From positions 124,001 through 188,000 of the forward strand of contig NZ_FWXJ01000001.1 in assembly GCF_900176405.1 (NCBI RefSeq): a DNA stretch of 64,000 nucleotides. Reading direction: 5' to 3'. Positions 23,931 through 30,766 of this stretch are shown here, piece after piece (the stretch's first letter is position 1; each line of letters begins with the position of its first letter). Made by a program: the position numbers and the translations under genes. The notes beneath the pieces were generated by a model. The model made no database searches, was not told where the DNA came from, and worked only from the letters and a program-made list of their open reading frames with translations. Origin of the DNA: Polynucleobacter kasalickyi (lineage in GTDB: Bacteria > Pseudomonadota > Gammaproteobacteria > Burkholderiales > Burkholderiaceae).

Positions 23931-24458
23931 ATGCAAAAAAGAATCTCGCCAGTAGTACCCGGTAGTCGTCCTGAATTAGCTGAAATTGAAGCGAACATCT
24001 TAAAAGAAAGAGGCAGAATCTCACCTCTTTATCAAACTTTATTGAATAGCCCCGCCATTGCGCACGGCTGGGAGACTTTATTAACGGCAATTCGTAATAA
24101 AAACTCATTACCCGCATCGCTGCGTGAGATGATTATTTTGCGTGTTGCAATTATTAACCGTGCTCCTTATGAGTTTGATGCGCATGTTCCGCATGCTTTA
24201 AAAGCAGGACTTTCTAATGAACAATTAGACGCCTTAAAAGCGCCAACATTTGAACAAATCTTACCAATTTTTAATGCGCTTGAGATGGCTGTGCTGCGTT
24301 TAACTGACGTGATGACCTTGCAAATTCAAGTGCCAGATGAAGTTTTTGCGCCGATTCGGGCTAATTACAACGATCAAGAAGTGTTGGAGGTAGTTGCCAC
24401 GATTGCTTCTTACAACATGGTCTCAAGACTTTTAAATGCATTACATGTCGGACATTAA
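23931..24458 (+). CDS. Carboxymuconolactone decarboxylase (CMD)-family protein
   Basis: A 175-residue, cysteine-free CMD-fold protein with the SLREMIILRVAIINRAPYEFDAH core (about residues 62-85). Absence of CxxC argues against an AhpD-type peroxidase. It sits between a Bug receptor and a ModA-like receptor, repeating the receptor-CMD pairing seen at 2813 and 60329. The reaction is unknown; a decarboxylase or isomerase acting on a lactone acid is the family-based guess. Confidence 0.85.
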   Translation: MQKRISPVVPGSRPELAEIEANILKERGRISPLYQTLLNSPAIAHGWETLLTAIRNKNSLPASLREMIILRVAIINRAPYEFDAHVPHALKAGLSNEQLDALKAPTFEQILPIFNALEMAVLRLTDVMTLQIQVPDEVFAPIRANYNDQEVLEVVATIASYNMVSRLLNALHVGH

Positions 24459-24498
24459 AAGAGCGTTCAATTTATAAATCATCATATGGGAGATCATC

Positions 24499-25260
24499 AT
24501 GTCACACCGAATTTTAAAAATGTTAGGTGCCTTGAGCTTTTGTTTGTTAGGAACCTTATCACAAACGATCATGGCTGCTGATCTCAATGTGATGGCTTCA
24601 GTAGCCTTTAAAGAGGCTTATTTGGAGATGCAACCTGAGTTTGAAAAAATCACAGGCAAAAAAATTAACACGCTTTGGTTGCCAACGGTTGAAATTATGA
24701 ATCGTTTGAAGGCGGGTGAAAAGTTTGATTTAGTGATTATGTCTTCAATTAACGTTGAACAACTCATGAAAGAAGGCAAGCTTTTGAATGGTACGCGTCA
24801 AGATTATGTGAAATCTGCCATTGGCGTTGGCATTCCAAAGGGTGCAAAAAAACCAGATTTAAGTACTGCGCAGTCGACGAAAGAAGCACTACTCAATGCG
24901 AAGTCGGTTGGTTATTCAACGGGTCCAAGTGGCGTTTACTTGGCCGCTTTATTTGATCGAATGGGCATTGCTGAAGCCCTAAAACCTAAATTGAAAATTG
25001 TGCAAGGTGAACCAGTTGGCGCATTAGTCGAGCGCGGTGAGATTGAGATTGCCTTACAACAAATTCCAGAAATTTTATCCGTTCCAAAAATTGATTATGC
25101 TGGCCCATTACCTGCTGAGCTCAACAGTACGACTATTTTCTCTTTTGTCTTGATGGATACGCCAAAGAGTAAAGATTTAGTGTTGGCTTGGATGGATTTT
25201 TTAAGAACACCTAAAGCAGTGCCAATTATTAAAAAATACGGACTCAATCCTGCTTGGTAA
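24499..25260 (+). CDS. ModA-like extracellular solute-binding protein
   Basis: A 253-residue periplasmic binding protein with a Sec signal (cleavage near IMAAD, residue 28). The type 2 periplasmic-binding fold is shown by LNVMASVAFKEAYLEMQPEFEK, LPTVEIMNRLKAGEKFDLVIMS and GYSTGPSGVYLAALFDRMGI. It resembles the molybdate-binding family, but no modB or modC follows and it ends a catabolic run, so an organic anion is as likely as molybdate. Confidence 0.85.
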   Translation: MSHRILKMLGALSFCLLGTLSQTIMAADLNVMASVAFKEAYLEMQPEFEKITGKKINTLWLPTVEIMNRLKAGEKFDLVIMSSINVEQLMKEGKLLNGTRQDYVKSAIGVGIPKGAKKPDLSTAQSTKEALLNAKSVGYSTGPSGVYLAALFDRMGIAEALKPKLKIVQGEPVGALVERGEIEIALQQIPEILSVPKIDYAGPLPAELNSTTIFSFVLMDTPKSKDLVLAWMDFLRTPKAVPIIKKYGLNPAW

Positions 25261-25289
25261 AGCTTTAGTGCCTGATAAAGTTTAGAAAA

Positions 25290-25324
25290 AAAAAGCTCCT
25301 GAAGTAACCATCAGGAGCTTTTTG
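25290..25324. terminator. Bidirectional Rho-independent terminator
   Basis: A 9-bp stem AGCTCCTGA (25294-25302) with TCAGGAGCT (25311-25319), followed by Ts on the plus strand and preceded by a run of As that gives Ts on the minus strand. It serves both the rightward eight-gene run and the leftward split cyclase gene. Confidence 0.88.
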
Positions 25325-25350
25325 CTATCTTCGCTTCCAGCAATCATTAT

Positions 25351-25969
25351 TTAATCAGCTTTTATTGCCGCTACAATCCGTAGTGGGCCACCGCTACCAC
25401 CAGCAATTTTCATTGGCAAAGCAATAATGTAAGCCCCGGTTACTGGTAGAGCATCTAAATTTGTTAGATTTTCAAATCCTGAAATATTGTTGCCTAACAG
25501 AATCCGGTGAGTCTGAAAATCTTTTGATTGGCCATAATCAATACTCGCCGTATCAATCCCTACCGATTTTGGTAATCTGTTTTCGACTAGCCAAGTACTT
25601 GCCTCCGGTGAAATACCCGGAAAGTGTAATTCTGGGATTGCTTCCATGCCTTTTTTATCGGTACCAAAATATTCTTTTCGGTTGGGATACAACTTGGCAT
25701 AGCCTGTATTGAATAAAACAATACTTCCCTTAGGAATCACTCCATTTGTTTTTTCCCAATCCACCAGGTCTTGAGGACTAATCAAGTAATCAGGATTACT
25801 TTGCGTCTTAGCACTCACGTTAATCACGACAGCATGGCCTGTGAGTGAACTGAGAGGAATTTGATCAACAGTCCAACCTTTTTCTGCAAAATGAATAGGC
25901 GCATCTAAATGGGTTCCACCATGCTCAGGTGTACTAATGGTATAGGACGAGTAAAAATAATTACCCGGC
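25351..25969 (-). pseudogene. Exported cyclase (kynurenine-formamidase-like), 3' part, split by IS607-like element
   Basis: The C-terminal part of a cyclase-family metal hydrolase. Read upstream of the first in-frame ATG (25827), the frame stays open and encodes SSYTISTPEHGGTHLDAPIH, which contains the metal-binding HGGTHLDAP motif. A further GIDTASIDYG segment and C-terminal strands are intact. The 5' part lies beyond the element at 28246-28448. Joining the flanks at the shared AAC restores an in-frame KGLATPGNYFY junction and a 273-residue protein. Alone, this fragment has no start or signal and is presumably not functional. The family hydrolyses N-formylkynurenine or cyclic amides and lactones. 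Confidence 0.85.
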
Positions 25970-25979
25970 GTTTGCCGTT

Positions 25980-26016
25980 AAAAAAAATATTGACTTTTAT
26001 TCCTAAAAAGGAATAA
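25980..26016 (-). ncRNA. Candidate 3' end of a TnpB guide (omega) RNA at the element right end
   Basis: On the minus strand a hairpin with 7-bp arms (TTATTCC 25997-26003, GGAATAA 26010-26016, plus-strand orientation) covers the tnpB stop codon. Eight Ts follow, about 10 bases from the inferred element end. TnpB guide RNAs are generally made from the 3' end of tnpB through the right end into flanking DNA. The position fits; the RNA itself is not demonstrated by sequence alone. Confidence 0.35.
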
Positions 26017-27628
26017 TTTGGTCAACGTCAGGCAACAGTAAACCCTGACTAACCCGTGGCATTTGCATTCCCGATACACAGTTAGCACTGCTTAAGTTCT
26101 TCATTGAGCTCAAGGGCGCAGGCAAATTACCTGACTGTGTATGCGCTTTTTGCGCGGCTATCAGACTTTTCCGAATATCAGACCAGTGACTCCATACATG
26201 TTTCCTGTGATTCCTTGCAGGTAACGGGAAAGTGACATGTGAACCATTGCGAGTTGGCACAAAGACCACTCGCTTAGTCGGGTTCTCAGAAAAGCCTAAA
26301 CCTCGCCGTGCAATGGCAATTGCAGCGGCTTGGTGAATTGATAAACCATGTGCTTGCGCGTAATTGACTGCGCCGATGGTGCTGGTAAAGGCAGGATTAA
26401 CTTCAATCACCTCGATCCCCGCTCTAAAACACGCAGCTTTAATGGTTTGGATTATTTTGTTATACGCCAAGCTGGAAAGCATCCGAGCATAATCAGGATT
26501 GGACTTGCTTAATGCTGCTTTCTTTTTAGAAAAATCCAATTGTTCCATCACGATTGGCCTGCAAGTGTTTTTGGCAAGCTCAACCAGTACCTTTACTTGA
26601 TCGCCAATGATGGCGCCTGCCTGACGGCTAGTTTTGTGATGCAAATGCAAAGGCAATTGACTACTCGATATCCAATTACCGCGATGGTCAATTTGCGATA
26701 CTGCAAGATGGTCGCTATTCAAATCAACGCCAATAGCACCACAATTGCGATTGCTGATTCTTTTGGGTGCAATGACATTGGTAGAAACAAAAAGACGATA
26801 ACCTGCTTGATCTCGCACAAAGCGGTAGGTCAACGCATTGCCTATGCGCTGTTTACCCTTTCGCATATCGCCATCCGCTCTTTCTACGCGTACACAAGAA
26901 TTGATCGCCGCAAGAATATTGTCCTTGCCATAAGCAAAATCTAAAGCGGTAATATGCAGATATTTTCCAAGATTGAGGCTATCTGGCAAGCGAAGTTGCA
27001 AACTGAAATGACCGTCGACCTGTTTTAGCTGGCAAAGCATATTGCCAGCACTCTCATCTTTAGAACCCACGAAAAAGCATTGATTGGCGCGACTAGCCCG
27101 CCAATCAGCTTGCCACTCTTCATGATTTTGATAGCCATTGGCTTCCAAATGGTATTGGGCATGAAAGAGTTTGCGTGTACCAAAGCAAATAGCATACGAT
27201 TTGATTTCTTTTTGCTTTTCAAAATCAGACAATTTGCTCATCAATATGGCTAACTTGCGCTGATACTGATGGAGGCTAAATAATTGCTTCTGAGATAAAG
27301 ACTTTCTCTTTTTAAGGTTAGTAATCTTGATCCGCATTTTGCCAATGCGAACCTTTGTCTCGCTAATATATCTTGTTAACAACTCTTTAATGGATTGTTT
27401 TTTTCCATCAATGGATATCGCAATACTATTAAACATTCGCGCAGAAATACCAAAATGTTCAATAAAGTAGCGTTTTAATTCATTACGCGTAAGATTTTCC
27501 GCTTTTTGCATAGCATACAGCTTTCGCTCTAAACGCGAATGTAAATCACAAAGCGCATCTAACGCTAACAGTTGCTCAGGGCTTAAGTCCAAGCGAGTTT
27601 GGTAAGTAAAAACCGATGATTCAGTCAT
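26003..27628 (-). CDS. tnpB: TnpB-like RNA-guided nuclease homologue, divergent RuvC
   Basis: A 541-residue protein using the ATG at 27628, which overlaps the tnpA stop by 8 bases as usual for coupled IS607 genes. An upstream ATG at 27718 would add 30 residues inside tnpA and is not preferred. RuvC-I is GAIGVDLN (Asp302), RuvC-II is PIVMEQLDF (Glu362) and the late motif NPAFTS is at 411-416. The zinc-ribbon CxxC pairs that normally follow are absent. In the RuvC-III position the sequence reads GLSIHQAAAIAIARRGLGFS, with His where most TnpBs have Asp. Remembered TnpB-related proteins from cyanobacteria share this shape, so it may be a subfamily feature rather than decay. It could be an active variant or a guide-RNA binder without cleavage. 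Confidence 0.85.
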   Translation of the reverse strand: MTESSVFTYQTRLDLSPEQLLALDALCDLHSRLERKLYAMQKAENLTRNELKRYFIEHFGISARMFNSIAISIDGKKQSIKELLTRYISETKVRIGKMRIKITNLKKRKSLSQKQLFSLHQYQRKLAILMSKLSDFEKQKEIKSYAICFGTRKLFHAQYHLEANGYQNHEEWQADWRASRANQCFFVGSKDESAGNMLCQLKQVDGHFSLQLRLPDSLNLGKYLHITALDFAYGKDNILAAINSCVRVERADGDMRKGKQRIGNALTYRFVRDQAGYRLFVSTNVIAPKRISNRNCGAIGVDLNSDHLAVSQIDHRGNWISSSQLPLHLHHKTSRQAGAIIGDQVKVLVELAKNTCRPIVMEQLDFSKKKAALSKSNPDYARMLSSLAYNKIIQTIKAACFRAGIEVIEVNPAFTSTIGAVNYAQAHGLSIHQAAAIAIARRGLGFSENPTKRVVFVPTRNGSHVTFPLPARNHRKHVWSHWSDIRKSLIAAQKAHTQSGNLPAPLSSMKNLSSANCVSGMQMPRVSQGLLLPDVDQIIPF

Positions 27629-28196
27629 CGTTGATGTCCAACTGAATAGCGCCAATCGCTTTATCGGCCTTATTTTTCGCAGAACGCTTGCCATATAGTC
27701 TTGCGCACATCGACACAATCACTTCGTGCAAATCTCGTACGATATCGTCCTGGACTTCATTTTCATCAACAACAATGATTTTGCGACCGCTAGCTTTCAG
27801 GCTTGCTTCAAGATAGCTAAATCCAAAACGCGTTAATCTATCTCGATGCTCAACAATAATGGTGTTGATATTTTTATTGGCAAGTAGGCGTAGCAATCCT
27901 TTGCGCTGACCGTTCATTCCTGAGCCGATCTCTTTAACCTTGTCGGAAATGAGGATTTGGTGTTCTATTGCATAGTCTACTAATCTTAATAGTTGCCTAT
28001 CTAAATCCTTCTTTTGGTCGCCAGAGTTGACTCTGGCATAAATGGCTGCAGTTTGCACCGGCTCATCATCGGGAAAAACAAGAATGGTGCCATTCGGCAA
28101 TTGCTCTGAACGAACGGGTAACTTATCGCTTTTATACATATTCCACGCACTGCGATAAGAGACACCTTTAGTTTTTGCCCAAACACTTAATTTCAT
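27621..28196 (-). CDS. tnpA: IS607-family serine recombinase TnpA, catalytic Ser replaced
   Basis: A 191-residue recombinase. An N-terminal MerR-like helix-turn-helix spans about residues 1-45 (WAKTKGVSYRSAWNMYKSDK), followed by a resolvase domain (IYARVNSGDQKKDLDRQL and EHRDRLTRFG). In serine recombinases the residue after the YARV motif is the nucleophilic Ser. Here it is Asn57 (codon AAC), although Ser58 follows. Arg55 and the RDRLTRFG arginines are retained. The change predicts a crippled enzyme unless Ser58 substitutes. Otherwise the gene is full length, without frameshift. Confidence 0.9.
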   Translation of the reverse strand: MKLSVWAKTKGVSYRSAWNMYKSDKLPVRSEQLPNGTILVFPDDEPVQTAAIYARVNSGDQKKDLDRQLLRLVDYAIEHQILISDKVKEIGSGMNGQRKGLLRLLANKNINTIIVEHRDRLTRFGFSYLEASLKASGRKIIVVDENEVQDDIVRDLHEVIVSMCARLYGKRSAKNKADKAIGAIQLDINDD

Positions 28197-28245
28197 GATG
28201 ATATTTTATGATGAAAGGCAATAAAAAGATATGTTTATTTATACA

Positions 28246-28448
28246 GTTGCCAACCCCTTAAATTCTTCCGTATGTTCAAAACCTTTTACATTGTTAGGCC
28301 AGTAAAGAGTGGACTGATCATAGGCATGCGATAAGTCGACCCATTTTGCTTTATTTAGATCTACCGCTGGATTATTTTTAGAAGGGGAGCAGGCATACAG
28401 TCCCAATGTAAGAATTAAAGTGAATGATATATAAGTAAATTTGCGCAT
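28246..28448 (-). pseudogene. Exported cyclase, 5' part with lipoprotein signal, split by IS607-like element
   Basis: The N-terminal part of the interrupted cyclase. It encodes a signal sequence with a lipobox-like LYAC near residue 20, then WVDLSHAYDQSTLYWPNNVKG, the usual start of cyclase-family enzymes (WxDLSH, TxYWP). The frame runs into the element and stops at TAA four codons after EFKGLATV begins to diverge (stop at 28239-28241). A lipoprotein signal would place the intact enzyme in the periplasm. The upstream 28449-28572 gap holds its promoter region, but no convincing -35/-10 pair was identified. Confidence 0.85.
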
Positions 28449-28572
28449 ATTTGTTACTCTTTCAATCCTGATTCTGAGTTAATCAATCAAAAAATTATAC
28501 ATAGAGCCTGATGGCAAAAGTTTAGGTTTAATTCATAGGCAAAACTTTTAAGTGTTGGCAAAGTCTAATGAG

Positions 28573-29772
28573 TTAGTCATCACTTGTTGTAGCTGCTTCA
28601 GGATAGAGATTTGGTAGTAAAAACTGAAGAGCCTTTAAAGGAAAGGCGAATTGGACAGGTGATTTATGGCTTTTACTTTTAATTAAACCAATTTGAATCA
28701 AACGAGATAGTAATGATCTAGCATTACGTTCACCTAGTCCGGTCATCTGTAAGAAGTCGCCTCTATTTAAGGGGCCAGTTAAATACAGGTGGTATAGGGG
28801 TATTATTGCTTCTTTGCGAATTAATTTATCCTGGCTTGACCAAAAAATGATAAGTGCTTCAATGTGATTCTTCATCTTTGTCAGTTCAAGCATTTTTTCC
28901 ATAAAACTTACTTGGTCATTTGCAATATTTAGAAACCAATCGCACCATTTCGATAAGGATTTGTCACTTAAGTTTCCTCTGCCATCTAGATCACCTTGTC
29001 TTGGTGAATCAGCTGCTGAAAGGTATGCGTAGTAAGCATCACGGTTGCGAGCAAGCCCTCGATTCATGGACCAAAGTCCCTTTGTTAGGGGAAGTAGACT
29101 TAAATGCGTCTGTAAACGTACTGCCCTCCCGTTACCATCTAGGAACGGATGAACCCACATCGCACGTTGGTGTTCGCATGCAATGGCAATGAGGCCTTGT
29201 TGAAAACTCACTGATTTTGCGTAAACATTATCCATTCTTGCTAAAAAATTAGGTACGCTAGTCCAAATTGGAGGTTCATGGATACCAACAGTTACATCTT
29301 CTTTTCGAATCTGCCCAGGCTCAATAATTCTAGCATCAGGAGTGGTTCTGTCTTGAGGTGCGAGACGACTATACAATGCCTGATGCGCATCTACTAAAAT
29401 GGAGGAACTAAGAGTGGTTTCCAATCCTAAAGTCGTAAACTTTTCAAGTTCTTTCTCCGCTTCAATGTAAGCAACTGCAATTCTTTGAAGTTTTGCAGTG
29501 TTCGGCTTATCCGAAAAATCCTTTACTAAGGCTCGTTCAATATTTACTGGATGCGTGCCTTGACCCTCGATACGGTTCGAATAATAAGAGTTCATAGACC
29601 GAACTAGTTCTTGAATCGATGCAAGAGTACTCGAGTGAATTCCAAGACCTAAACGAGAAGACCTTTCTATAATCTCAATCGCTTTCGGATTTAATGATTC
29701 CAGCTTTGTTTGTGGCAACAAAGGCTCAAATTGATGAATTTTAGAATAATGAGAAGTTATGATTTGACTCAT
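28573..29772 (-). CDS. Fic-domain AMP-transferase (class II, N-terminal inhibitory helix)
   Basis: A 399-residue Fic protein. The active motif HPFLDGNGR is at 208-216. The N-terminal inhibitory motif [S/T]xxxE[G/N] appears as SNRIEG at 65-70, marking an autoinhibited class II Fic enzyme that needs no separate antitoxin. A winged-helix C-terminal region (about 320-390: TGPLNRGDFLQMTGLGERNARSLLSRL) follows, as in many Fic proteins with DNA-binding tails. It transfers AMP or another nucleotide to a protein hydroxyl; the target is unknown. The ATG is preceded directly by an ACCGGCA repeat pair instead of a good ribosome site. It is a single gene with accessory character beside the IS element. Confidence 0.9.
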   Translation of the reverse strand: MSQIITSHYSKIHQFEPLLPQTKLESLNPKAIEIIERSSRLGLGIHSSTLASIQELVRSMNSYYSNRIEGQGTHPVNIERALVKDFSDKPNTAKLQRIAVAYIEAEKELEKFTTLGLETTLSSSILVDAHQALYSRLAPQDRTTPDARIIEPGQIRKEDVTVGIHEPPIWTSVPNFLARMDNVYAKSVSFQQGLIAIACEHQRAMWVHPFLDGNGRAVRLQTHLSLLPLTKGLWSMNRGLARNRDAYYAYLSAADSPRQGDLDGRGNLSDKSLSKWCDWFLNIANDQVSFMEKMLELTKMKNHIEALIIFWSSQDKLIRKEAIIPLYHLYLTGPLNRGDFLQMTGLGERNARSLLSRLIQIGLIKSKSHKSPVQFAFPLKALQFLLPNLYPEAATTSDD

Positions 29773-29775
29773 TTC

Positions 29776-29797
29776 TGCCGGTAAATTTGCCGGTTAA
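29776..29797. repeat. Proximal pair of TGCCGGTAAA repeats at the Fic start
   Basis: TGCCGGTAAA (29776-29785) and TGCCGGTTAA (29788-29797), start-to-start 12 bases. The pair ends three bases from the Fic ATG, where a ribosome site would normally lie. A second pair with the same 12-base spacing is 89 bases further upstream. Candidate autoregulatory operator. Confidence 0.7.
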
Positions 29798-29864
29798 AAA
29801 TTAAATAATAATCAATAATAACAGTTATTTAAGTAAATAAAAAGATAATATTTTAAATTATTTC

Positions 29865-29886
29865 TGCCGGTAAATCTGCCGGTAAA
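29865..29886. repeat. Distal pair of TGCCGGTAAA repeats upstream of Fic
   Basis: Two exact TGCCGGTAAA copies (29865-29874 and 29877-29886), with the same orientation and spacing as the proximal pair. An AT-rich tract of about 65 bases lies between the pairs and probably contains the Fic promoter. Confidence 0.7.
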
Positions 29887-29920
29887 ATCACCTCTTCTCC
29901 AACGGGAAAGAGATGATTTT
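29884..29920 (-). terminator. Terminator of the leftward catabolic operon
   Basis: A 13-bp near-perfect stem: AAAATCACCTCTT (29884-29896) with AAGAGATGATTTT (29908-29920), one non-Watson-Crick pair, Ts at the 3' end in both orientations. It lies just beyond the stop of the last leftward hydrolase and overlaps the edge of the distal Fic repeat. Confidence 0.65.
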
Positions 29921-29929
29921 CGGTAATCT

Positions 29930-30766
29930 TTACGAATGTTTTTGCATGAACTCGTGAAATTTATCTGCCATTTGTGGATAGTAGTCCTTCCACATCGGGA
30001 AATGGATCAAATCAATATCTTGATCTTCTATCGGCAACTGAAATAATTCGCTGTTGGGGATTAATTCAGCTGCAGCAATACCATTCACGCTGGCATGGGT
30101 TTTATCATTACCAGGCACCACTAAGACAGGCAGTTGATAAGCAGCTAATTCAGCGTTTTCCATCCCCATGACAGGGCTTCTAGGACCTTGCAAAAACTTG
30201 CCTAACCAGTGTTCCATTTGTGCAATATAAACCTTGGGGTCCATCTTCATTACATACTCTCGGTTCGCAGGATTGAGAGCTAATCGTTCTTGATAGGGCA
30301 GTGTTTCACAAAGTCCTGCCATGCCACCTTCTTTGACTGCATTAATGTATTGCAAATAGTACATGGTAGGTAAGCGACCTGCCGCAAATTCACCGCCCGT
30401 CACACGCATTAACAGTAAACCACGCACTGCCTCGGGGTGCCTGCGTTTTACAAGCATACAAAGCCTTGCACCTGCTGATGAGCCACTGAAAAATGCAGGC
30501 AGGGCATTTAAGCTTTTCATGAGCAGATAGAGGTCATCGGCCCAAATTTCTTCTTCGCCTTCATCACCCTCAAAGAGCATTTGGGAGGCACCTAAACTTC
30601 TGCGGTCATGAACTACTACGCGATAACCGTATTTAGCAATCGTTTGAGCAAATAACACCATCTCTTGATGGCTATTGCGTCCACCAGAATTTAAAGCTAA
30701 CCACGGACCTTGCGTTCCAATGACTTCATAAAAAATTTGTACACCACGAATATCAGCGTAAGGCAT
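29930..30766 (-). CDS. Alpha/beta hydrolase
   Basis: A 278-residue hydrolase without a signal peptide. The nucleophile elbow is SGSSAGARL with Ser97. DRRSLGAS at 54-61 matches the strand-4 loop of the family, and VVPGNDKTH probably carries the acid. A histidine in IDLIHFPMW near residue 260 could complete the triad. It is the last gene of the leftward operon starting at 37376. It resembles the enol-lactonase/meta-cleavage hydrolase branch. The substrate is unknown. Confidence 0.82.
   Translation of the reverse strand: MPYADIRGVQIFYEVIGTQGPWLALNSGGRNSHQEMVLFAQTIAKYGYRVVVHDRRSLGASQMLFEGDEGEEEIWADDLYLLMKSLNALPAFFSGSSAGARLCMLVKRRHPEAVRGLLLMRVTGGEFAAGRLPTMYYLQYINAVKEGGMAGLCETLPYQERLALNPANREYVMKMDPKVYIAQMEHWLGKFLQGPRSPVMGMENAELAAYQLPVLVVPGNDKTHASVNGIAAAELIPNSELFQLPIEDQDIDLIHFPMWKDYYPQMADKFHEFMQKHS

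What the first reader, a model, noticed from the sequence alone, without database searches (positions are those of the whole stretch)
26003..27628. TnpB homologue without zinc ribbon and with His in place of the RuvC-III Asp
Seen: RuvC-I Asp302 and RuvC-II Glu362 are present. The region after NPAFTS has no CxxC pairs, and the RuvC-III position reads SIHQAAA. Established: canonical TnpB has a four-Cys zinc ribbon and a third acidic residue. Nuclease-dead TnpB relatives acting as guided repressors and TnpBs with rearranged catalytic sites have been reported. Inference: this could be an RNA-guided binder or a nuclease with an altered active site.
Basis: partly seen in the sequence, partly recalled or inferred. 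Interest (0 to 1): 0.7.

Follow-up and report, generated by a model that had tools for sequence, protein, structure and literature searches.

The report
TnpB nuclease with histidine active site
A jumping DNA element in a bacterium carries a relative of the RNA-guided DNA cutter TnpB in which one of the three usual active-site acids is a histidine and the zinc-binding part is missing; sequence evidence suggests a working variant rather than a dead one, but no activity has been tested.

Summary
The ORF at 26003-27628 (minus strand) encodes a TnpB-like protein with RuvC-I Asp302, RuvC-II Glu362, no CxxC pair, and His432 at the RuvC-III position. It is the second gene of a complete IS607 element (25977-28253, GG core) that interrupts a cyclase gene, whole in one related genome. 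Neither oddity is a one-off. In a hand-picked set of 32 full-length relatives (five phyla plus viral contigs), Asp302 and Glu362 are invariant, none has a Cys in the ribbon place, and the RuvC-III residue is His in 24, Asp in 7, Ala in 1. The tree needs at least two H/D changes. The gene's 3' part carries its one clear peak of synonymous conservation, and in four close relatives the equivalent region covaries as an RNA ending at the transposon edge: a probable guide (omega) RNA; the window's own copy folds only weakly. A predicted RuvC core puts His432 on the C-terminal helix, at or near the place where Thermus RuvC resolvase has catalytic His143. Best reading: an active RNA-guided nuclease with a D-E-H site; a dead guided binder is less likely. 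TnpB clades with rearranged RuvC-III are already reported (RIII-r4), so this is a variant of a known kind. Cleavage is untested.

The parts
25977..28253 (-). IS607 element, tnpA then tnpB; GG core at 25975-25976 and 28254-28255
   Evidence: Related genome G1067 (L052; 85% complete, 5% contaminated) has the cyclase gene whole; read by eye, the element interrupts it between GGG and CAAACG. The second own copy L002 has matching ends.
27621..28196 (-). tnpA, IS607 serine recombinase, 191 aa
   Evidence: NF033518 transpos_IS607 178 bits over cut-off 110; Resolvase PF00239 E 1e-15.
26003..27628 (-). tnpB-like gene, 541 aa; overlaps the end of tnpA by 8 nt
26723..26725 (-). RuvC-I Asp302 codon
   Evidence: Invariant 32/32; in predicted strand 298-303.
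26543..26545 (-). RuvC-II Glu362 codon
   Evidence: Invariant 32/32; end of predicted strand 359-362.
26333..26335 (-). RuvC-III His432 codon
   Evidence: H 24, D 7, A 1 of 32; start of predicted helix 431-443.
25975..26224 (-). probable omega-RNA scaffold: 3' part of tnpB up to the right end (includes the GG core)
   Evidence: Covariation in the equivalent region of four relatives, 13 of 88 pairs changed on both sides, 0/500 shuffles as high; the window's own fold is weak, z -1.75.
26209..26224 (-). conserved nucleotide block TTACCTGCAAGGAATC inside the coding region
   Evidence: Codon identity 0.63-0.66 in the bins starting at aa 457 and 465 against 0.40 over the gene, 14 sequences.
25990..26025 (-). 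terminal hairpin next to the right end, holding the tnpB stop codon; similar sequence in the second own copy
25955..25974 (-). first 20 nt of flank that a right-end RNA would carry as guide
   Evidence: Inference from the right-end position and the known TnpB layout.
28254..28257 (-). GGGG at the left-end flank: candidate TAM, including the GG core
   Evidence: GGG directly before the left end in the 11 elements whose left end I placed by eye, partly by that motif; 5 further tnpA-bearing elements were not placed. Independent support: empty site of the window; homology of two P. silesiensis copies starts in the GGG.
28256..28448 (-). 5' part of the interrupted cyclase gene
   Evidence: read by eye against L052.
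25351..25974 (-). 3' part of the interrupted cyclase gene
   Evidence: Cyclase PF04199 E 1e-18; 82% nucleotide identity to the whole gene in L052.

Best explanation
This is the TnpB of an intact IS607 element, from a branch that has a short linker instead of the zinc ribbon and mostly D-E-H instead of D-E-D in the RuvC site. The 3' end of its own transcript is the omega RNA; its guide is read from the DNA flanking the right end, and a G-rich motif at the left-end flank serves as TAM. The ribonucleoprotein binds the empty site and cuts it with metal ions held by Asp302, Glu362 and His432, so that repair restores the element. Shown here: gene, element ends, conservation of the three residues, RNA covariation in relatives. 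Inferred: guide use, TAM, metal binding by His432, cleavage.
For: Asp302 and Glu362 are 32/32 and the third position is H or D in 31/32, although mean column identity is 28% over 17 of the rows. On the tree the D rows need two changes and D as one clade is rejected (p-AU 0.0016); the Thermus-type D clade is sister to an H clade at 100/97: H and D replace each other while the other two residues stay. 16 of 24 H-type loci have a tnpA homologue upstream, against 0 of 7 D-type and 0 of 1 A. RNA: 13 of 88 pairs changed on both sides in four relatives, no shuffle of 500 as high; synonymous conservation peak. The predicted RuvC core aligns with T. thermophilus RuvC over 296-448 to 1-159 (4ep4, Z 13.7, 2.9 A, 135 residues) and with ISFba1 TnpB (8iaz, Z 12.4, 2.9 A, 136 residues). 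Counting back from the range ends, 432 falls on 143 in the four Thermus RuvC entries. The catalytically critical residues are D7, E70, H143, D146 in TthRuvC and D7, E66, D138, D141 in EcRuvC (PMC3864405, passage). Argonautes use a DEDH/D tetrad (PMC10772731, passages).
Against: No activity is known to me for this branch. In the survey of 59 TnpBs the passages I read name an active RII-r5 protein but none of RIII-r4 (PMC10278001). TthRuvC keeps a second acid three residues on (D146); here position 435 is Ala in 31 of 32 and Ser in 1. The model rests on five sequences, pTM 0.37, with only pLDDT 65 for the block holding Glu362, and gave no coordinates to measure. Folds matched best include proteins I recall as non-nucleases (Tex, Spt6) and as naturally inactive (Cas12k), so the fold says nothing on activity. 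The same end count gives 139, not 138, for the Pseudomonas RuvC 6lw3 (and 139 for the D. radiodurans ones); sequence alone fixes the helix register to RuvC in only 10 to 17 of 32 rows. The window's own RNA folds little better than shuffles. The Calothrix member has Ala.
Confidence: 0.6

Rival explanations
1. A nuclease-dead, RNA-guided binder: His432 breaks the site, and the protein only finds and blocks DNA, as TldRs do.
For: The canonical third acid is absent; several independent inactivations of TnpB with guide and DNA binding kept are reported (PMC13418256, passages). One relative has Ala there.
Against: Asp302 and Glu362 would be expected to drift but are 32/32; the third position is H or D in 31/32, and the tree needs at least two changes between them; tnpA is present, and copies lie at different sites.
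Confidence: 0.2
2. A nuclease whose missing acid is supplied from another position, so that His432 is a bystander.
For: Positions 273, 314 and 365 are acidic in 18, 20 and 19 of 24 H-type rows and in 0, 0 and 2 of 7 D-type rows; Fanzors and RII-r TnpBs have a rearranged RuvC-II site (PMC10711439, passages; PMC10278001, passages).
Against: None of the three is conserved in all H-type rows, whereas the H/D column is H or D in 31 of 32. Position 448 is acidic in 20 of 24 H-type and 5 of 7 D-type rows, so it is no swap.
Confidence: 0.12
3. Cuts something else than double-stranded DNA, such as single-stranded DNA or RNA, or only nicks.
For: Several TnpBs process their RNA but show no activity in a double-strand screen, and other substrates were proposed (PMC10278001, section 14).
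Against: No feature seen here points to another substrate; the element layout is that of IS607 elements whose TnpBs cut double-stranded DNA (PMC11061315, passages).
Confidence: 0.06
4. A decaying or misread gene.
For: Broken copies of the family exist elsewhere, with stops inside.
Against: Open over its whole length in two own copies 61% identical, with the same three residues and similar ends.
Confidence: 0.02

Closest known systems
IS607-family TnpB (ISFba1 TnpB, RAGATH-18-guided)
   Same: Same transposon type, TnpA serine recombinase, RuvC Asp and Glu, right-end RNA, G-rich TAM at the left end (reported 5'-AGGAG or GAGGG; PMC11061315, passages).
   Different: ISFba1 is 387 aa, uses D194, E290 and D371, and its RNA lies outside the coding region; here 541 aa, His at the third place, no zinc ribbon, probable RNA overlapping the gene end, and no Rfam family reaching its gathering score in 24000-30000.
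RuvC-III-rearranged TnpB clade (RIII-r4; Altae-Tran 2023, Nety 2023)
   Same: Also defined by an unusual RuvC-III site; survey orthologues of 353 to 550 aa (PMC10278001, passages).
   Different: Cannot be compared: the defining paper is not held and the passages I saw of the other give no sequence. This family may simply be that clade.
Lalka phage TnpB with CRISPR-like array
   Same: Same zinc-ribbon-less branch by sequence and tree.
   Different: Asp at the RuvC-III place, no tnpA homologue found upstream, array of 29-nt repeats beside the gene (PMC11437467, passages).
T. thermophilus RuvC resolvase
   Same: RuvC fold, and a His among its catalytically critical residues (PMC3864405, passage).
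   Different: A Holliday-junction resolvase, not RNA-guided; keeps a second Asp on the helix where this protein has Ala435 if the register is right.
TldR nuclease-dead repressors
   Same: TnpB-derived with altered RuvC site.
   Different: Here Asp and Glu are kept and tnpA is present.

Membership tests
IS607 insertion sequence | IS607-type serine recombinase TnpA | tested here: met
   NF033518, 178 bits over cut-off 110.
IS607 insertion sequence | GG-type core, no target duplication beyond it, clean empty site | tested here: met
   L052 compared with the flanks, 82% identity over two pieces, junction read by eye; exact to within the shared G run. One genome only.
TnpB RNA-guided nuclease | RuvC-I Asp and RuvC-II Glu | tested here: met
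   32 of 32; HMM matches across RuvC-II.
TnpB RNA-guided nuclease | RuvC-III Asp | tested here: not met
   His432; the four canonical TnpBs used as yardstick (4 of 9 loci; the others broken, partial or wrongly cut out) have an invariant Asp after the ribbon.
TnpB RNA-guided nuclease | four-Cys zinc ribbon | tested here: not met
   No CxxC in the window protein, no Cys in the ribbon place in 32 rows. The four TnpB/Cas12f-type PDB alignments printed stop at the TS before the ribbon.
TnpB RNA-guided nuclease | structured right-end RNA | tested here: inconclusive
   Supported for four relatives by covariation; for the window itself only hairpin, conserved block and z -1.75.
TnpB RNA-guided nuclease | guided cleavage | not testable with these tools
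   Needs the bench.
TldR | nuclease site lost | tested here: inconclusive
   Two of three residues invariant, third replaced by His.
TldR | uncoupled from tnpA, beside non-transposon genes | tested here: not met
   tnpA overlaps tnpB.
RIII-r4 TnpB clade | position in the published tree | not testable with these tools
   Defining paper not held.
type V CRISPR effector | adjacent CRISPR array | tested here: not met
   No array in 24000-30000: one pair of direct repeats at 29738-29887 only. Two D-type relatives have arrays.

The most novel reading that the evidence does not exclude
A widespread lineage of RNA-guided DNA nucleases runs on a D-E-H metal site without a zinc ribbon, and its third ligand has switched between His and Asp more than once: a natural experiment in active-site chemistry that may change metal use or make it a nickase.
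Probability: 0.5. Interest if true: 0.7.

Novelty: new variant of a known kind. Interest (0 to 1): 0.5.

Why it matters
The expected TnpB site is Asp, Glu, Asp (PMC10278001, passages). A branch that keeps the first two and holds the third to His or Asp makes the question whether His can serve directly testable, with natural D-type and H-type relatives as controls. It also offers a TnpB scaffold without a zinc ribbon.

Tried and rejected
Sequence search of the PDB with the single protein gave no TnpB. The profile gave weak TnpB/Cas12f matches (best E 0.00026), with a coiled-coil protein of no relevance ranked among them. Profile comparison with four canonical TnpBs aligned RuvC-I only, and with the own RuvC nothing useful. 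Sequence-only register of the RuvC helix was ambiguous: 17, 10, 12 and 16 of 32 rows for four RuvC motifs; I treat the match to His143 as likely, not shown. By the same end count residue 302 falls on 7 in RuvC (4ep4) but on 196 in ISFba1, two off its D194. E448 was dropped as compensating acid. The synonymous peak is not seen in every pair: window against L023 has 2 of 9 identical codons in the block and 51 of 175 elsewhere. Wider RNA alignments (12 and 6 rows) were gappy and not folded, so covariation rests on 4 of the 16 right ends placed. Those 16 of 20 looked at were found by eye by their ending in CGG, so that ending is no independent result; the other 4 (L025, L028, L031, L038) were not placed. 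Kin searches were thin: 7 of 299 genomes of the family at E 1e-10, 1 of 349 of the phylum at 1e-20, the own genome, 2 of 369 of the class at 1e-15, own included; one genome-contig relative, 35 residues long; 55 plasmid records of 72,556 and 4 phage records of 50,697 at 1e-5. Six viral scans were answered: two found no relative, one only a locus already held, three found new ones. Rows dropped before the 32-row count: fragments and broken copies (L006, L007, L008, L011, L012, L014-L020, L024, L040), L003, and duplicates (L044, L046, L050). The 32 rows are hand-picked (22 regions fetched from the plasmid and phage hits, chosen for variety, plus full-length loci of the genome and viral searches), not a census. 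The tree has long branches, and the place of the two D rows L009/L013 is weak (53/20). Of the three state changes one is the Ala. Literature: ten searches; nine papers opened, by passages or one section only; I saw none that describes His at this place, but the central paper (PNAS 2023, 10.1073/pnas.2308224120) is not held, so no claim of first description is made. Recalled, from no call: that Tex and Spt6 are no nucleases and Cas12k is naturally inactive.

Full report
What was claimed and what is there. The reading is exact. The 541-aa protein matches NCBI's guided_TnpB and TnpB-related models (E 1e-13, below the cut-off, and 2e-12, above it), with Asp302, Glu362 and His432 where stated, and holds no CxxC pair.

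The surroundings. The gene follows, with an 8-nt overlap, an IS607 serine recombinase. Both lie in a cyclase gene. One genome of the same genus (G1067, locus L052; 1 other than the own among 121 searched) has that gene whole, 82% identical in the flanks; comparison puts the element at 25977-28253 with a GG dinucleotide on both sides. A second copy lies elsewhere in the same genome, 61% identical in TnpB and 87% in TnpA. Three copies lie at different places of one Pseudomonas megaplasmid: two share both ends, the third by blastn the right end only, and the tnpA of two is broken or shortened. The elements thus look mobile.

Is His432 an accident? I aligned 32 full-length relatives from Pseudomonadota, Bacillota, Actinomycetota, Deinococcota, Cyanobacteriota, phage and viral contigs. 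Asp302 is present in 32 of 32, Glu362 in 32 of 32. The RuvC-III column is His in 24, Asp in 7 and Ala in 1 (Calothrix); no row has a Cys between the columns of residues 412 and 432. On a tree built without the column, the D rows need two changes (three for all states, one being the Ala), and the best tree with all D rows as one group is rejected (p-AU 0.0016). The Thermus-type D rows are sister to H rows from Peptoclostridium, Ammonifex and a record labelled Klebsiella (100/97). Long branches weaken the deep part of the tree, and the other D pair, L009 and L013, is placed weakly (53/20). So His and Asp appear to have replaced each other while the other two residues stayed. A dead site would be expected to drift to many residues; this one does not.

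Is there a guide RNA? In 14 sequences, identical codons at identical residues run at 0.40 along the gene and reach 0.63-0.66 only in the bins starting at residues 457 and 465; the next highest bin has 0.53. Not every pair shows it: the window against L023 does not. The block reads TACCTGCAAGGAAT. From there to the right end, four relatives (three Pseudomonas silesiensis copies and one of strain FeN3W) share a fold in which 13 of 88 pairs changed on both sides, against a shuffled mean of 5.0 and none of 500 shuffles as high; slid structures gave 1 to 3. Only four sequences, three of them close, support this, and the structure was derived from the same alignment. The fold z-scores were -4.1, -3.2 and -1.75 for one relative, the second own copy and the window, the last being weak. 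I placed 16 right ends of 20 looked at, by eye and by their ending in CGG; the flanks after it differ, as guides would. The left-end flank ends in GGG in the 11 placed by eye; five tnpA-bearing loci were not placed. Fixed independently are the window's ends (empty site) and those of two P. silesiensis copies, whose shared sequence starts in the GGG and ends within a base of the CGG. G-rich TAMs are reported for other IS607 TnpBs (PMC11061315, passages).

Structure. Blocks of the RuvC part scored 73-92 at 291-360 and 74-91 at 391-450, but 54-65 at 361-390, which includes Glu362. Asp302 and Glu362 lie at the ends of strands, and His432 starts helix 431-443. The core matches RuvC resolvases (D. 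radiodurans 7xhj Z 14.0, 2.7 A, 135 residues; T. thermophilus 4ep4 Z 13.7), Cas12f, ISFba1 TnpB (8iaz Z 12.4), Cas12k, and also Tex and Spt6. Ranges give ends only; counting back, residue 432 falls on Thermus RuvC 143 in four entries, on 139 in the other three RuvC entries, and on 370 in ISFba1, next to its D371. TthRuvC has His143 where E. coli RuvC has Asp138 (PMC3864405, passage; sequences seen). This is a precedent for the exchange, but TthRuvC has a further Asp146, where the family has Ala in 31 of 32 rows, and sequence alone does not settle the register.

How it most likely works. It is probably an RNA-guided nuclease whose metals are held by Asp302, Glu362 and His432, guided by the flank to the empty site and thereby keeping the element in place. 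The gene, the ends, the residue pattern and the RNA covariation in relatives are shown; guide use, TAM, metal binding and cleavage are inferred.

What is known. Nety et al. 2023 describe five main TnpB clades, one of them RIII-r4 with a rearranged RuvC-III, and say that such sites need not be inactive; they report activity for an RII-r5 protein and name none for RIII-r4 in the passages I read. The defining paper is not held. This family may be that clade. The Lalka phage relatives with CRISPR-like arrays are published as a possible type V system (PMC11437467, passages); that they belong to the same zinc-ribbon-less branch, with Asp instead of His and without a tnpA homologue upstream, is seen here.

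Verdict. Observation confirmed; interpretation partly supported; new variant of a known kind; worth a bench test because natural D-type and H-type relatives give the controls.

Noticed in passing
L041:3911-4280; L049:2660-3061: CRISPR-like arrays of 7 repeats beside D-type members in Thermus phage Lalka27b and in a separate viral contig (protein 98% identical); the phage case is published (PMC11437467).
   Followed up: partly
L037:1056-3931: On an Ammonifex plasmid an annotated iscB lies directly upstream of the TnpB-like gene.
   Followed up: no
window 25977-28253 and L002: The two own copies differ far more in TnpB (61% aa identity) than in TnpA (87%).
   Followed up: partly
L026:2429-4162: The Calothrix relative has Ala at the RuvC-III place and no tnpA homologue found upstream: a candidate dead member.
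   Followed up: no
L038: The member in a record labelled Klebsiella pneumoniae groups with Ammonifex; the host label may be wrong.
   Followed up: no
L047, L048: Two closely similar D-type genes lie on one 55-kb viral contig (IMGVR_UViG_3300020567_000299).
   Followed up: no
window 28573-29772: A Fic-domain gene beside the interrupted cyclase gene; the same neighbours are kept in L052.
   Followed up: no
window 29738-29887: A 61-nt direct repeat in two copies, 72% alike, at and just upstream of the start of the Fic gene.
   Followed up: no
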